Virus record (IMG/VR): IMGVR_UViG_3300008954_000003
Location: 95,630-159,629 of that record
Length of the DNA: 64,000 nt
Strand: one strand, 5' to 3'
DNA from: a virus
Shown in pieces: positions 3 to 61,442 of this stretch (the first letter of the stretch is position 1; every line of letters starts with the position of its first letter). The translations under genes and the position numbers were made by a program. Under the pieces are notes generated by a model. That model worked only from the letters and a program-made list of their open reading frames with translations, was not told the origin of the DNA and did no database searches.

Positions 3-1157
3 TTTCCGTTTTCAGTTTATTCGGGGAACAATTATTTTTTAAGCGGTGCAGCAGAGCAGGTTGCATACACATACAAGAAACTTGGAGGCGATAGCCTTGG
101 TATCGAAATCAAGAATGAAAATGTTTATGCCGCATATGAAGAGGCCGTTCTTGAATACTCATACATAATCAACGTTCACCAATCAAAGAACGCTTTACCT
201 GTGATGCTTGGAAACACAACAGCAAGCTTTGATCACCGAGGACAAGTCATAAGCACGGAAAGCCTCGTTTCAGCAAGTGTTGAGCTTCGCTATCCAAGAT
301 TTGAAATGCCACAACCAATGCGTGTTGGCAAGGGTCTTGGTAAAGAGGCTTCTGTTGGAGGCGAAGTTCGCTATTATTCAGCATCATTTTCACCGACAGC
401 GAGCCAACAAGATTATGACCTTCAGACTCTTATTTCAAGTTCGAATAAAAATCTTGATATTGGGAATAAAAAGATTGTTATTCGTGACATGTATTATCGG
501 ACACCAAGATCCATGTGGAGGTTCTTTGCATACTATGGAGCACTGAACGTTATTGGAAACCTTCATGACTATGGTCAGTATAGTGATGAATCTTCATATG
601 AGGTTGTGCCTGCTTGGCAGAACAAACTGCAAGCCATGGCTTACGAAGACAGTTTGTATACAAGAATTTCACATTATTCATATGATATTGTGAACAACAG
701 GTTGAGATTGTTCCCAACACCGGGAACACACTCACCGGACAAATTCTTTTTAAGGTTTTATATTCCGCAGGATGCGTGGGTTGAAGAGGATGATCGCCAA
801 AGAGGCGGTCGTGGCGTAAACAACATGAACACGTTGCCATTTGCAAATATTCCATATAACAATATCAACGCTATTGGGAAGCAGTGGGTTCGAAGATATA
901 CTCTTGCACTTGTTAAAGAGACGCTTGGCCTTGTTCGAAGTCGTTTCGGGACGATCCCCATCCCAGGAGATTCGGTTACTCAAAACGGTGCGGAACTTAT
1001 ATCGAGTGCCAAAGAAGAACAAAAAGCTTTGAGAGACGAACTCAAAGAAATCCTTGATGAACTGACGTACAGCAAGATAACAGAAACGAATGCTGATATG
1101 GCAGACAAAACAAAGGATGCCTTAAGAGCAGCGCCACTGCCAATCTTTGTGGGGTAA
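3..1157 (+). CDS. Neck/head-tail adaptor structural protein (5' end outside window)
   Basis: The reading frame is open from base 3 through the window edge, so the ATG at 201 is internal and the gene begins upstream. The visible N-terminal part contains a helical stretch (KKLGG, then YEEAVLEYSY, then NVHQSKN) of the kind seen in phage head-tail connector and adaptor proteins. The C-terminal third is charged and probably helical. It lies at the head of a neck-terminator-sheath-tube gene order, which supports a connector role. The assignment is by resemblance and position, not by a catalytic motif. Confidence 0.5.
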   Translation, partial: FPFSVYSGNNYFLSGAAEQVAYTYKKLGGDSLGIEIKNENVYAAYEEAVLEYSYIINVHQSKNALPVMLGNTTASFDHRGQVISTESLVSASVELRYPRFEMPQPMRVGKGLGKEASVGGEVRYYSASFSPTASQQDYDLQTLISSSNKNLDIGNKKIVIRDMYYRTPRSMWRFFAYYGALNVIGNLHDYGQYSDESSYEVVPAWQNKLQAMAYEDSLYTRISHYSYDIVNNRLRLFPTPGTHSPDKFFLRFYIPQDAWVEEDDRQRGGRGVNNMNTLPFANIPYNNINAIGKQWVRRYTLALVKETLGLVRSRFGTIPIPGDSVTQNGAELISSAKEEQKALRDELKEILDELTYSKITETNADMADKTKDALRAAPLPIFVG

Positions 1158-39055: not shown

Positions 39056-39078
39056 GATGCACTTTGAATATTTCAATA

Positions 39079-39086
39079 CTATTTAT
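39079..39086 (+). promoter_or_regulatory. Candidate late promoter motif CTATTTAT (39116 gene)
   Basis: CTATTTATAATAG lies 37 bp before ATG 39116 in the gap between dnaE and a virion-type gene. Confidence 0.5.
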
Positions 39087-39115
39087 AATAGTTAATCGTA
39101 GGAGAGTACTTTAAC

Positions 39116-39925
39116 ATGCCTAGTCCAAGAAAACGAAGAATTCGCAAGAGAATCATTGGAGATCGTTTATTTTTATCTTCAAGTTTAAGTTCATCAGTGG
39201 CAATCACCGATGATCAAAACCTTTTTAAGCTTGCCATGTATGGTAGCGGAGGTGTCAAAAACACATTCAAAGATGGGAGCACAACCCTTCTGTCTGACGC
39301 CGTTTCTGATGAAACGGGTTTGTGGTCAAGTGGCTCTGGTAACTTTTCAACAGGGGAAACAACAGATTTAGATGTGACTGGCGAAACAGTGAGACACTAC
39401 TGGATGCCAAGACCAAAAGCTGGTTTATGGACAGCAGACATTTCTGGTTCTGCAACATCACCATTGGCGATTATCTACAGTTGGAATGGGCCGCAGGCAA
39501 GAATGAATGCGCGCTACTACTTCACAGGTTCAGAAGCGGGCTCTGATGAGCAAGTAGGACGTGCAGGAACTTCATCGATTAGTTTCGCAAAAGATGCATT
39601 AACCTCATCAGTTGACGATACCCAACAGTTGTTGTGGTTGTATTACTCTGGTCGGATTCCCGAGGGTGATCGCATTGATGTCTATACAGGGTCAAGTGAT
39701 TTGGATAGATCAAGCTTTGTGACTGCAAGCCTTTCAGGTTCAGGGAACTACCTGTCAGGGAACCTTTACATCCCAACAGAAAGTATTGGTGACACCTTGC
39801 ACATCGTGTTTAGTGCGTCCGCAACAACAACAAGTGCTTGGAAAGAGGGCTTCTTCATTTACTTGACAAGCTCAGACTCCCTTGAGCCAAACGCTCGTAC
39901 AGGTTCTTGGAACGAATACGCATAA
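39116..39925 (+). CDS. Virion-type beta-rich protein, unknown
   Basis: A 269-aa protein with a very basic N-terminus (PRKRRIRKRIIG), then a Ser/Gly/Thr-rich beta-type body (SGNFSTGETTDLDVTGETVR, FTGSEAGSDEQ, SLSGSGNYLSG). The composition is typical of decoration, fibre or fibritin-like proteins. A candidate late promoter and AGGAGAG precede it. It stands alone between dnaE and dut, with a terminator right after. Confidence 0.5.
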   Translation: MPSPRKRRIRKRIIGDRLFLSSSLSSSVAITDDQNLFKLAMYGSGGVKNTFKDGSTTLLSDAVSDETGLWSSGSGNFSTGETTDLDVTGETVRHYWMPRPKAGLWTADISGSATSPLAIIYSWNGPQARMNARYYFTGSEAGSDEQVGRAGTSSISFAKDALTSSVDDTQQLLWLYYSGRIPEGDRIDVYTGSSDLDRSSFVTASLSGSGNYLSGNLYIPTESIGDTLHIVFSASATTTSAWKEGFFIYLTSSDSLEPNARTGSWNEYA

Positions 39926-39930
39926 CAGTG

Positions 39931-39959
39931 TTGACAAATAATAAGACCTCCCGTATAAT
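39931..39959 (+). promoter_or_regulatory. Consensus sigma70 promoter for dut
   Basis: TTGACA (39931-39936), 17 bp, TATAAT (39954-39959): a full-consensus promoter whose -10 lies inside the left arm of the terminator hairpin at 39947-39985. Confidence 0.9.
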
Positions 39960-39985
39960 GGACGAAATTATACGGGAGGTTTTTT
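39947..39985 (+). terminator. Intrinsic terminator interlaced with the dut promoter
   Basis: A perfect 13-bp inverted repeat (CCTCCCGTATAAT / ATTATACGGGAGG) with a 7-base loop is followed by six T. RNA reading in from upstream forms the hairpin, which also traps the GGGAGG RBS of dut. RNA starting at the dut promoter (about 39966) contains only the right arm, so it neither terminates nor hides the RBS. Confidence 0.85.
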
Positions 39986-40447
39986 ATGATTTTGAGATAT
40001 AACAAGGTTCGTGCTTGGGCGAAGCCGCCGCAGAGAGCGAACCCATCTGATGCAGGAGCCGATTTGTTTTATTGTCCGGTTGGTGGCGACAGCAGTGGCG
40101 TTGTTATCGGTGAAGGAAAGAGTGTTCTTATCCCAACAGGTTTAAAGATCGAAGTCCCACATGGATATATGCTTGAAATAAAGAACAAGTCAGGTATCGC
40201 TTCAAGGAAGAAGCTTGTCGTTGGAGCGTGTGTCGTTGACTCTGGATACAATGGAGAAGTCTTTGTTAACCTTCACAACATTGGGAATGAACCTCAAAAA
40301 ATTCGCAATGGAGAAAAGGTTGCACAAGCAGTGCTGATCCCTGTTGTTCATTGTAGATTTGTTGAAAGTCATGCTGAACTATATGCTGAACCGGGTGTTA
40401 CAATTTCAAATAGAGGTGACGGTGCCTTGGGGAGTACAGGTAAATGA
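39986..40447 (+). CDS. dut: dUTPase
   Basis: A 153-aa trimeric-type dUTP pyrophosphatase. All five motifs are visible: DAGADL, KNKSGIASRK, VVDSGYNGEVFVNLHN, GEKVAQAVLIPV, and the C-terminal NRGDGALGSTG (arginine/Gly-rich lid). It prevents uracil incorporation and yields dUMP for ThyX. RBS GGGAGG then T6 then ATG. It has its own interlaced promoter. Confidence 0.95.
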   Translation: MILRYNKVRAWAKPPQRANPSDAGADLFYCPVGGDSSGVVIGEGKSVLIPTGLKIEVPHGYMLEIKNKSGIASRKKLVVGACVVDSGYNGEVFVNLHNIGNEPQKIRNGEKVAQAVLIPVVHCRFVESHAELYAEPGVTISNRGDGALGSTGK

Positions 40448-41548: not shown

Positions 41549-42598
41549 ATGGCCAAGAAGAATAAAGTATTATTGGAAAACAACGTCATTGCTAATTTCA
41601 TGCGTCATGCAGGTCTTTCTGAACATTCACAAGAGTTCTTAACGGAACAAAAAGAGCTTGAAGAAGATGAAGAGCTTGAAGAAGGTTGCGAGATGGACGA
41701 AGACAAGTATGAAGAGAGTGAGTACCCTGGGAGAAAGAAAAAGAAGACTCCTTGGGACAGAGCAAGGAAGAAAATTGATGACCTTAAAGAAGGTGACGAA
41801 GAGTTGGAAGAGGCAATTAATATCAAGACTGGTGAAAAAGGTCTTGCTGCTAAAGGCCCCAACAACAAACAGGACAAAGAAGGCACTCGCAAAGCTAAGA
41901 ACCCTGAAGGTTTGGCTGGCAAGAGCGGTGGTGGAAAAGACACTTCACATCACAAGCGTAAGTCGAGCAAGCGCCCAACTGTTGACGGAACCGATCTGAG
42001 TAAGATGGGTGGTGGCCCAAAGAAGTTAAAAGAAGAAGAGGAACTTGAGGAAGAAGAGGATCTTGTCGAGAGCCTCATGAGTTTACTCCGCGAAATGCCC
42101 GAAGAAGACATGCTTGATGACGAAGAAGATGTCGAAATGGGTGGTGAAGAAGACCTTGGCATGGATGACATGGGCGGTGAAGATGATGACGACCTGGAAA
42201 TGGGCGATGATGAAATGGAAATGGAAGACGACCTCGGTGAAGAGGGCGGAATGGACGCTGCTAAAGTTGAAGCCGCACTTGAATCAGGACTAAAGGCATT
42301 TGCTGAAGCCGTTTCAGAAGAGCTTGGAATTCGCATCGATGTTAAACAAGGTGGCGAAGAAGAGCTTGGTGGCGAAGAGGACGAAATGGACTTCGGTGGC
42401 GAAGAGGACGAAATGGACTTCGGTGGCGAAGAAGAAGAAGAGCCAATGCTTGAAGAAGCCGTCCGCAAGGTGGTGAAGCAGGTTCAGGCCCGCCTCTCAA
42501 AGAAGGGCAAAGGAAAGAAGAGTTCACAGATTGCAGAACGTGTTGCGAAGCGTGTTGCAAAGAGACTCGTTGAAAGCAAGAGAAAGAAAAGACGTTAA
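41549..42598 (+). CDS. Acidic prohead core/virion protein
   Basis: A 349-aa protein. The leader NNVIANFMRHAGLSEHSQEF, then LTEQ, resembles leaders of other late proteins here. The middle is extremely acidic (Glu/Asp repeats, GGEEDEMDFGGEEDEMDFGG), and a compact segment KAFAEAVSEELGIRI precedes a very basic C-terminus (ERVAKRVAKRLVESKRKKRR). Such bipolar proteins occur in phage prohead cores and scaffolds. A candidate late promoter precedes it and a strong terminator follows. The scaffolding role is inferred from composition. Confidence 0.55.
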   Translation: MAKKNKVLLENNVIANFMRHAGLSEHSQEFLTEQKELEEDEELEEGCEMDEDKYEESEYPGRKKKKTPWDRARKKIDDLKEGDEELEEAINIKTGEKGLAAKGPNNKQDKEGTRKAKNPEGLAGKSGGGKDTSHHKRKSSKRPTVDGTDLSKMGGGPKKLKEEEELEEEEDLVESLMSLLREMPEEDMLDDEEDVEMGGEEDLGMDDMGGEDDDDLEMGDDEMEMEDDLGEEGGMDAAKVEAALESGLKAFAEAVSEELGIRIDVKQGGEEELGGEEDEMDFGGEEDEMDFGGEEEEEPMLEEAVRKVVKQVQARLSKKGKGKKSSQIAERVAKRVAKRLVESKRKKRR

Positions 42599-45682: not shown

Positions 45683-45711
45683 TTGACAGGAAAAGCGGGG
45701 AGTGTTACACT
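45683..45711 (+). promoter_or_regulatory. Sigma70-type promoter for gene 45734
   Basis: TTGACA (45683-45688), 17 bp, TACACT (45706-45711). The -10 lies in the inverted repeat GGGGAGTG-TTA-CACT-A-CCCC (45697-45716), which could be an operator. Confidence 0.75.
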
Positions 45712-45733: not shown

Positions 45734-46147
45734 ATGCAAGTTAAATTCGCAATTATTGAGGACGCGGACAAGGTTTCTGAAGCCTTGGCTGATAGGCTTG
45801 GAGAACTCCGGTTTAAGATGGAGGCCGTCAAAGATGGGCTTTATAGCTTACAAGGGGTAATGACCCCGCAACTTTTTGATCCCGTAGCGTCTTCAACAAT
45901 TTTAACAAAAATTAAAAACGAACAAATCAAGATTCTTAATGTAATGGACAGCATTTCCGAAACATTGGAATCGATGATACCAAACGAACAGACCCCTAAC
46001 AGAGAGGATGAAGAGCAGGCAATTGTTCAGCCACAAGTAGGTGTGAACATGGGCAAGGTTGGAGAGCTTATAAATCAAATGAAAGAGCTTCAAGAAGTGA
46101 GAGATTCCCTATCGCCAGAAGGAGTCGAAATTGAAAGCGACAGCTAA
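45734..46147 (+). CDS. Small helical protein, unknown
   Basis: A 137-aa protein. ATG 45734 has a perfect AAAGGAGGTGA RBS; the longer frame overlaps the promoter. Helical and acidic (EALADRLGELRFKMEAVKDG, NMGKVGELINQMKELQEV), probably oligomeric coiled coil. No motif recognised. Confidence 0.6.
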   Translation: MQVKFAIIEDADKVSEALADRLGELRFKMEAVKDGLYSLQGVMTPQLFDPVASSTILTKIKNEQIKILNVMDSISETLESMIPNEQTPNREDEEQAIVQPQVGVNMGKVGELINQMKELQEVRDSLSPEGVEIESDS

Positions 46148-46880
46148 GGCTTTATTCCTTGGCGTCCTTTTGTCCCTGCTCTTTGTTCCCTCTGTCTCTA
46201 ATTCGTTGCAAGGTATGGAGTGTGTTCGGCTCTATATCAAGCATAAAATCATTGTTCGTACAGATATCGATACGAACGACTTCTCAACAAAGTATTGGAA
46301 TTCAGCATATCGCGTGGAGCGTGTAAAAAAGAATCAATTTCCAAAAGTCTGTTTTGCCGTTGAGAGTTTTTATAAGAAATACCCAATCTTGATTGATAAA
46401 AACCTTGTTTCAATCAATGTCGTGAATGATATTCGTTATCGAGAAAGAATAACGATGTCTGGAACATATAAGAATGGAGTAATATACCTAAAATCCCAAC
46501 ACTCAGGGCATACGGCAGAATATCTTGAAAAGATCCTTCATCATGAATTTTCAAGCATTATGACGAAGACCTATCCATTCCCTTGGGGTATCGAGTGGGT
46601 GGGTGCCAGTGCAAAAAGATACAATTTTGACTATACAGTTCTTGAGGTTGGTCGCTATGATGCAAGAGATGAACGTCATGAGTTATTGAGAGATGGATTT
46701 GTTAATGTTTATGCAGCAAGAGATTTCGAAAATGATTTCAATATGTGTGCTGAATATTTGTGGACCATGCCGAAAAGATTCAAAGAGCTTGGGCGTAAAT
46801 ATCCAAGAATTGAAACAAAGAGAAGACTTATCAAAAAATATTATGAGAGGATGATTCGATCTCATAAAAAACTGCCTTGA
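46131..46880 (+). CDS. Secreted Mx1-like putative metallopeptidase
   Basis: A 249-aa protein with TTG start 46131 (AAGGAG 7 bp before). A signal peptide (ALFLGVLLSLLFVPSVSNS) directs export. The helix KILHHEFSSIMTK has the HE of a zinc helix, but the second His of HExxH is replaced by Ser. Downstream GFVNVYAARDFENDFNMCAE could supply the Glu ligand. This HHEFSS/ENDFN pair is a known variant pattern of putative zinc peptidases from bacteria. It could act on the host envelope. Activity is uncertain. Confidence 0.6.
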   Translation: MKATAKALFLGVLLSLLFVPSVSNSLQGMECVRLYIKHKIIVRTDIDTNDFSTKYWNSAYRVERVKKNQFPKVCFAVESFYKKYPILIDKNLVSINVVNDIRYRERITMSGTYKNGVIYLKSQHSGHTAEYLEKILHHEFSSIMTKTYPFPWGIEWVGASAKRYNFDYTVLEVGRYDARDERHELLRDGFVNVYAARDFENDFNMCAEYLWTMPKRFKELGRKYPRIETKRRLIKKYYERMIRSHKKLP

Positions 46881-46905
46881 CATAAATTTGGGGTTCGTGT
46901 AGAAT
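46877..46905 (+). promoter_or_regulatory. Sigma70-type promoter for gene 46946
   Basis: TTGACA (46877-46882), 17 bp, TAGAAT (46900-46905); the end of the -10 overlaps the left arm of the terminator at 46903-46936. Confidence 0.8.
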
Positions 46906-46936
46906 GACAAGTGCGAGAGCACTTGTCATTTTTTTT
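46903..46936 (+). terminator. Intrinsic terminator interlaced with the 46946 promoter
   Basis: A perfect 12-bp stem (AATGACAAGTGC / GCACTTGTCATT) with a GAGA tetraloop is followed by eight T. Local transcripts start at about 46912 inside the left arm, so only read-through RNA from upstream forms the full hairpin. Confidence 0.9.
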
Positions 46937-46945
46937 GGAGAAAAG

Positions 46946-47155
46946 ATGAATGAAGCGAAATATAAGCTTGGAGAACTGATTGCAACAAAGAGCTTTTATG
47001 ATGAGTTAGCAATTATTATAAGAATTCATGAACATGCAGATCCAGACAAGGCTTTCTATTTATTGAAATACCCGAATTCAAACAAAGAGGTCTGGAAGTC
47101 AGAAGAAGAATTGATAAAACCAACAATTAAAGGAGAGAAAAATGGGAATGTTTGA
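46946..47155 (+). CDS. Small unknown protein
   Basis: A 69-aa protein; ATG 46946 preceded by TTTGGAG. It begins KYKLGELIATKSFYDELAII, then a strand-rich segment and KEVWKSEEELIKP, resembling small SH3-like barrel proteins of phages. It overlaps the next gene by 14 bp. Confidence 0.55.
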   Translation: MNEAKYKLGELIATKSFYDELAIIIRIHEHADPDKAFYLLKYPNSNKEVWKSEEELIKPTIKGEKNGNV

Positions 47156-59761: not shown

Positions 59762-59790
59762 TTGACCTTTGGGGTTATACAACATAAAAT
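59762..59790 (+). promoter_or_regulatory. Sigma70-like promoter for gene 59828
   Basis: TTGACC (59762-59767), 17 bp, TAAAAT (59785-59790). The spacer and -10 lie in the left arm and loop of the terminator-like hairpin at 59767-59815. Confidence 0.55.
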
Positions 59791-59815
59791 CAGGTCAAAC
59801 CCCCAAGACTTTTTT
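59767..59815 (+). terminator. Terminator-like hairpin interlaced with the 59828 promoter
   Basis: CTTTGGGGTT / AACCCCCAAG (one mismatch) with a 21-base loop is followed by ACTTTTTT. Local transcripts start at about 59797 and contain only the right arm. Confidence 0.6.
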
Positions 59816-59827
59816 GAGGATAAAACG

Positions 59828-61374: not shown

Positions 61375-61404
61375 AGCGATTTCTCCTATATCTCCGGTGT
61401 GTTG

Positions 61405-61433
61405 GGGCTGGGCTTGACAGGAGAGCCCAGCCC
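61405..61433 (+). promoter_or_regulatory. Inverted repeat framing the -35 of the MoxR-gene promoter
   Basis: GGGCTGGGC / GCCCAGCCC, a perfect 9-bp repeat with an 11-base loop holding the -35 TTGACA. It could terminate RNA from upstream (only a weak T-run follows) or act as an operator. Confidence 0.7.
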
Positions 61434-61442
61434 TGGCATACT
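61414..61442 (+). promoter_or_regulatory. Sigma70-type promoter for the MoxR-like gene
   Basis: TTGACA (61414-61419), 17 bp, CATACT (61437-61442). The leader runs about 58 bp to ATG 61507, with CCAGGAGA as RBS. Confidence 0.75.

What the first reader, a model, noticed from the sequence alone, without database searches (positions are those of the whole stretch)
39931..39990. Promoter and intrinsic terminator woven together upstream of dut
A full-consensus sigma70 promoter (TTGACA, 17 bp, TATAAT) has its -10 inside the left arm of a perfect 13-bp hairpin that ends in T6 and whose right arm contains the dut RBS. Upstream RNA would terminate and, if it read through, would mask the RBS. RNA starting at about 39966 has only the right arm, so it escapes both. 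This makes dut expression depend on its own early promoter even when late transcription passes through.
Basis: partly seen in the sequence, partly recalled or inferred. Interest (0 to 1): 0.75.

Follow-up and report, generated by a model that had tools for sequence, protein, structure and literature searches.

The report
Promoter hidden inside a terminator hairpin
In a marine bacterial virus, the 60 bases before a nucleotide-metabolism gene (dut) appear to end any RNA arriving from the gene before, hide the ribosome site in RNA that slips through, and start a fresh RNA that escapes both; this is a tidy example of a compact phage gene-insulation device whose kind is already known.

Summary
Neither part is a chance match. 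Folding supports the proposed logic: opening the ribosome site costs 19.4 kcal/mol in read-through RNA but 1.5-2.6 in RNA begun at 39964-39968.

It is not unique. Promoters sit inside terminators far more often than at other offsets in related phages. The same layout, ribosome site in the right arm, occurs before dnaE in two relatives and before modB in RB49-like coliphages, where promoter, terminator and RBS are already annotated in separate records. The upstream gene carries a putative phage late promoter (39078-39092), and relatives with dut directly behind dnaE lack a promoter there (0/21, versus 10/41 with inserts). The most likely job is 'stop late transcripts, restart dut'. It is a new member of the composite promoter-terminator kind (T4-like PeSLs), with RBS masking as in T4 gene e. 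No RNA data exist; termination, start site and timing are inferred.

The parts
39931..39936 (+). -35 hexamer TTGACA
   Evidence: exact consensus
39954..39959 (+). -10 hexamer TATAAT, end of the left arm of the hairpin
   Evidence: exact consensus, spacer 17
39947..39959 (+). left arm CCTCCCGTATAAT of the 13-bp perfect stem (anti-Shine-Dalgarno CCTCCC plus -10)
39960..39966 (+). hairpin loop GGACGAA; predicted transcription start about 39965-39967
   Evidence: start inferred from usual -10 to +1 distance; sequence
39967..39979 (+). right arm ATTATACGGGAGG; GGGAGG at 39974-39979 is the dut ribosome binding site
39980..39985 (+). T6 tract of the intrinsic terminator, also the RBS-to-start spacer
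39986..40447 (+). dut, dUTPase (153 aa)
   Evidence: phrog_135 5.7e-39
39116..39925 (+). orf269 (269 aa, no known family), the gene inserted between dnaE and dut; stop codon at 39923-39925, 5 nt before the -35
39078..39092 (+). ACTATTTATAATAGT, putative phage late promoter of orf269
   Evidence: motif 17 copies on + strand vs 2 on -, before structural ORFs; same motif before the orf269 homologue in L073
46877..46945 (+). second nested element: TTGACA-17-TAGAAT, hairpin TGACAAGTGC-gaga-GCACTTGTCA overlapping the -10, T8, then GGAG and ATG at 46946; RBS not masked
59762..59827 (+). third, weaker nested element: TTGACC-17-TAAAAT in the loop between TTGGGGTT and AACCCCCAA arms, T6, GAGGA, ATG 59828; RBS not masked
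   Evidence: hairpin -10.6 kcal/mol

Best explanation
An insulated-restart element. RNA polymerase coming from orf269 (probably late transcription from 39078-39092) makes the full hairpin and T6 and mostly terminates at about 39980-39986. RNA that reads through keeps GGGAGG buried in the stem, so dut is poorly translated from it. Host sigma70 polymerase starting at about 39966 makes RNA with only the right arm: it can form neither the terminator nor the mask, and its leader of about 20 nt exposes the ribosome site. dut is therefore expressed from its own host-type (presumably early) promoter and uncoupled from the inserted gene. Shown: sequence anatomy, non-chance occurrence, calculated folding difference, recurrence in other phages. 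Inferred: start site, termination efficiency, translation block, timing.
For: Anatomy and chance tests. Ribosome site opening cost 19.4 vs 1.5-2.6 kcal/mol. In 319 non-redundant terminators of related phages, the predicted start of a promoter scoring 11/12 or better falls 1-15 nt before the right arm in 13, against 0-1 in nearly all other 15-nt bins except a second peak of 6 at +45..59. Same layout before dnaE in L118 and L125; all three variable stem pairs stay paired through G-U on the sense RNA, which a DNA palindrome would not need. Same layout and masking in unrelated contigs L181, L205, L244, L418 and in RB49 modB (11-17 vs 1-5 kcal/mol). dut directly behind dnaE: 0/21 have a promoter of 10/12 or better; with an insert 10/41 (Fisher p=0.012). 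L073, which also has an orf269 homologue between dnaE and dut, has a terminator followed by a promoter before dut, and L074 has a nested element before dut. A late-type motif precedes orf269 in both this phage and L073.
Against: No RNA 5' or 3' ends. TSS and termination are predicted from consensus. Host is unknown; fit to the E. coli consensus is assumed to be meaningful. The late role of orf269 rests on a motif and on low-complexity, structural-looking sequence, not on a family match. The p=0.012 treats related phages as independent. RBS masking is not universal: elements at 46877 and 59762 and in L074 leave the RBS free.
Confidence: 0.8

Rival explanations
1. Terminator and promoter only. 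The hairpin is simply a compact terminator that shares bases with the promoter and the RBS to save space; masking of the RBS is a by-product without regulatory weight.
For: Other nested elements in the same genome (46877, 59762) and in L074 terminate without masking the RBS. In the CCTCC vs GGAGG spacer comparison in viral contigs, palindromes are only slightly commoner with CCTCC (9/111 vs 5/104, not significant).
Against: RBS-in-arm elements recur in unrelated phages (L086 even without a T tract, so masking alone), and hairpins whose right arm is an RBS are the ones that hold a promoter inside (15/37 vs 2/53).
Confidence: 0.12
2. Operator: the inverted repeat over the -10 is a DNA binding site for a dimeric regulator of dut.
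For: A 13-14 bp inverted repeat with a 7-nt centre over a -10 is also what an operator looks like.
Against: No copy of the arms elsewhere in the genome beyond 12-14 nt chance matches; the other nested elements have unrelated arm sequences; the T6 and RBS placement would be coincidence; variation between L118 and L125 keeps pairing by G-U on the sense RNA only.
Confidence: 0.05
3. Recombination cassette: the element is mainly a mobile junction (PeSL-type) that mediates gene shuffling, and regulation is secondary.
For: It sits at the edge of a variable insert between dnaE and dut (58 loci adjacent, 86 with 0.25-3.9 kb between); in coliphage JSE the upstream neighbour of the modB element is a different gene, a homing endonuclease.
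Against: The nested elements of this genome share no sequence long enough for homologous recombination.
Confidence: 0.03

Closest known systems
PeSL (promoter-early stem-loop) composite promoter-terminator cassettes of T4-like phages RB49, phi1, PST, nt-1 (Arbiol 2010 doi 10.1093/gbe/evq006; Comeau 2014 doi 10.1093/gbe/evu129; both cited in PMC4503421, texts not held here)
   Same: Strong sigma70-like promoter combined with a stem-loop terminator between genes of a phage with a T4-type capsid protein, at the edge of a variable insert.
   Different: Here promoter and terminator overlap rather than follow one another, the RBS is in the stem, and no sequence is shared between elements, so a shuffling role is not supported.
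Element before modB in RB49 and other Krischvirus phages
   Same: Promoter, hairpin beginning right after the -10, GGAGG in the right arm, T6, ATG. GEC-3S annotates the promoter and Ec_Makalu_002 the terminator with the RBS inside it.
   Different: In modB the -10 abuts the left arm instead of lying in it, and the start is predicted within the distal left arm; different gene and no sequence relation.
[quoted passage not shown]
   Same: Upstream-started RNA folds a hairpin over the RBS; for gene e, RNA from an internal promoter lacks the 5' arm and is translated.
   Different: There the internal promoters are T4 late promoters and the masked gene is late; no terminator role is described in that review. 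Here the internal promoter is host type and the hairpin also ends in T6.

Membership tests
PeSL composite promoter-terminator | strong sigma70-like early promoter | tested here: met
   12/12 with spacer 17; 'early' timing not testable
PeSL composite promoter-terminator | stem-loop that is an effective terminator | tested here: inconclusive
   hairpin plus T6 present, -23.9 kcal/mol; termination itself not measured
PeSL composite promoter-terminator | in an intergenic, variable region of a T4-related phage | tested here: met
   60-nt intergenic gap next to a variable insert; capsid protein matches T4-type major capsid proteins and RM378. It is a distant relative: the polymerase is DnaE type
PeSL composite promoter-terminator | copies similar enough to recombine and shuffle genes | tested here: not met
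   no shared sequence beyond 16 nt among elements of this genome
T4 gene e-type RBS-masking leader with internal promoter | RBS paired in upstream-started RNA, free in RNA from the internal promoter | tested here: met
   19.4 vs 1.5-2.6 kcal/mol by folding only
T4 gene e-type RBS-masking leader with internal promoter | internal promoter is a phage late promoter | tested here: not met
   the internal promoter is host sigma70 consensus

The most novel reading that the evidence does not exclude
Hairpins that are at once terminator, RBS mask and carrier of the gene's own promoter are a widespread, repeatedly evolved phage device, with a host-sigma version for early genes (this element, L118, L125, L181, L418, RB49 modB) and a phage-late-promoter version (TAAATA/TACATA inside 12 of 37 RBS-type hairpins, 0 of 53 others), allowing early and late genes to be interleaved on one strand.
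Probability: 0.4. Interest if true: 0.6.

Novelty: new member of a known kind. Interest (0 to 1): 0.4.

Why it matters
Phages with nearly all genes on one strand must keep neighbouring genes of different timing apart. This element does so in 60 nt and links transcription start, transcription stop and translation in a single hairpin. If it works as inferred, it is a compact insulator part for synthetic operons, and it predicts from sequence which early genes escape late read-through. It also warns annotation programs: calling only the promoter, only the terminator or only the RBS, as in the two coliphage records, hides the device.

Tried and rejected
Minus-strand function: the minus strand also carries a TATAAT and a hairpin, but its -35 is 3-4 of 6 and its T tract is broken; rejected. 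Rfam match in 35000-64000: only two tRNAs. Finding orf269 or a T4-type gp55 by similarity: no match for orf269 in annotated phages; RB49 gp55 gave no match in this genome, which shows little. Reading CCTCC in the spacer as itself enriched for palindromes: 9/111 vs 5/104 for the GGAGG control, not significant. RBS-type CCTCC..GGAGG-T hairpins carry sigma70 promoters only a little more often than others (5/56 vs 2/58 at 10/12 or better); the clear signal came from late-like TA[AC]ATA motifs (shuffle mean 1.5, maximum 6 of 37), partly from one gene family, so not independent. ATG after such hairpins is 16/60 against a 6.5% background, but GGAGG attracts start codons anyway, so this is weak. The two PeSL papers are not in the library; what is said of their content rests on their titles and on PMC4503421.

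Full report
What is there. The 60 nt between the stop codon of orf269 (39923-39925) and the ATG of dut (39986) hold TTGACA (39931-39936), TATAAT (39954-39959, spacer 17), a perfect 13-bp stem (39947-39959 with 39967-39979, loop GGACGAA), T6 (39980-39985) and the RBS GGGAGG (39974-39979) in the right arm. The chance expectation is very low for each part: 2 exact promoters vs 0.04 in shuffles, and 1 such terminator vs 0.

Where it lies. The window is the last 64 kb of a 159.6-kb virus record. The phage is a myovirus: tail sheath, baseplate wedge, portal, terminase and a T4-type major capsid protein whose best annotated matches are Flavobacterium phage immuto, Microcystis phage Mel-JY01 and Rhodothermus phage RM378. 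It has a DnaE-type polymerase. By a simple non-overlap choice of ORFs, 161 of 172 are on the + strand, so transcripts can easily run from one gene into the next.

Folding. In read-through RNA (39880-40060) the GGGAGG has an unpaired probability of 0.0 and costs 19.4 kcal/mol to open. In RNA starting at 39964, 39966 or 39968 the cost is 1.5 to 2.6 kcal/mol. A start anywhere downstream of the -10 removes the whole left arm, so the result does not depend on the exact start.

It recurs. In this genome a second element (46877-46945) and a weaker third (59762-59827) also hold the promoter inside a terminator, with the RBS outside the stem. In 1.9 Mb of related contigs (plus this genome) there are 319 non-redundant terminator-like hairpins; the start predicted from promoters of 11/12 or better lies 1-15 nt before the right arm in 13 of them, while other 15-nt bins hold 0-1, apart from a second peak of 6 where the promoter follows the terminator. 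Two relatives (L118, L125) have the full device, RBS in the right arm and T7 before ATG, in front of dnaE. Their three differing stem pairs all remain paired on the sense RNA by G-U, which points to an RNA structure in the transcript and not to a DNA operator. Unrelated contigs L181, L205, L231, L244 and L418 show RBS-masking palindromes around a sigma70 -10.

Known kind. Coliphage RB49 has the same layout before modB: TTGACA-17-TATTAT, GCCTCCCGTC/GATTGGAGGC, T6, ATG. At least 55 annotated phage records carry most of that region. GEC-3S annotates its promoter; Ec_Makalu_002 annotates its terminator and an RBS inside it. PeSLs, composite promoter-terminator motifs of T4-like phages, are a named kind (titles cited in PMC4503421). 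RBS masking relieved by an internal promoter is established for T4 gene e (PMC3014915). The present element combines both.

Why here. In relatives dut usually follows dnaE directly (58 loci) or after a variable insert (86 loci). None of 21 distinct directly adjacent dut genes has a promoter of 10/12 or better within 120 nt; 10 of 41 with an insert do (p=0.012, not corrected for relatedness). The insert here is orf269. It is preceded by ACTATTTATAATAGT (39078-39092), a motif found 17 times on the + strand and twice on the - strand, at 27-42 nt before structural and other ORFs such as the tail sheath; I take it as the phage's late promoter. L073 has an orf269 homologue at the same place, the same motif before it, and a terminator followed by a promoter before dut. 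L074 has a nested promoter-terminator before dut. Three lineages thus stop and restart transcription before dut by different sequences, which argues that stopping and restarting is what is selected.

Mechanism and limits. The most likely mechanism is: late RNA from orf269 terminates at the T6; what reads through is masked; the host-type promoter makes an unmasked, unterminated dut RNA. Sequence and folding are shown; start site, termination efficiency, translation block and timing are inferred. One limit follows from the geometry: the terminator ends downstream of the promoter it contains, so passing polymerases still cross the promoter, unlike the tandem arrangement in L073.

Generality. Among CCTCC..GGAGG-T6 hairpins in viral contigs, those whose GGAGG stands before an ORF hold a T4-late-like TA[AC]ATA in 12 of 37 cases against 0 of 53 for the others (base-shuffled loops give a mean of 1.5, maximum 6). 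Several belong to one gene family, so the number of independent cases is smaller, but it suggests that the same trick exists with phage late promoters.

Verdict. Observation confirmed, interpretation supported by computation and comparison, novelty limited: a new member of a known kind with an unusually complete overlap of its parts.

Noticed in passing
window 2500, 7749, 39078, 41513, 55930 and record positions 64981, 90844, 95504: Putative phage late promoter ACTATTTATNNTAG: core CTATTTA 17 times on the + strand against 2 on the -, mostly 27-42 nt before start codons of structural and other ORFs; ACTATTTAT 98 times in related contigs against 14.5 expected.
   Followed up: partly
window 46877-46945: Second nested promoter-terminator with T8 and GGAG just after it; the stop codon of the upstream ORF (46131-46880) overlaps the -35.
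   Followed up: partly
window 59762-59827: Weaker nested element, -10 in the loop, left arm in the promoter spacer, before a 57-aa ORF.
   Followed up: partly
window 61402-61442 and 45683-45711: Strong inverted repeats overlapping promoter hexamers but without T tracts (GGGCTGGGCT..AGCCCAGCCC around a -35; GGGGAGTGTTACACTaCCCC around a -10).
   Followed up: no
window 34235-34170, - strand: TTGATA-17-TATATT followed at once by a hairpin and T6 on the minus strand, inside a + strand ORF; may be chance.
   Followed up: no
window 41549-42598: 349-aa very acidic protein (long E/D runs) with a late-type motif before it and no family match; possibly a head scaffold protein.
   Followed up: no
L422, L502, L506, L512, L518, L527, L528 (viral contigs): A family of ORFs of about 195 aa (phrog_30607 in L422) starting right after CCTCCCagcTACATAcTGGGAGG-N-T6 hairpins: RBS inside a terminator without a sigma70 promoter, perhaps a late-promoter version of the device.
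   Followed up: partly
L607 (coliphage JSE): The modB element is kept while the upstream neighbour is a homing endonuclease gene; the sequence junction lies within the promoter.
   Followed up: no
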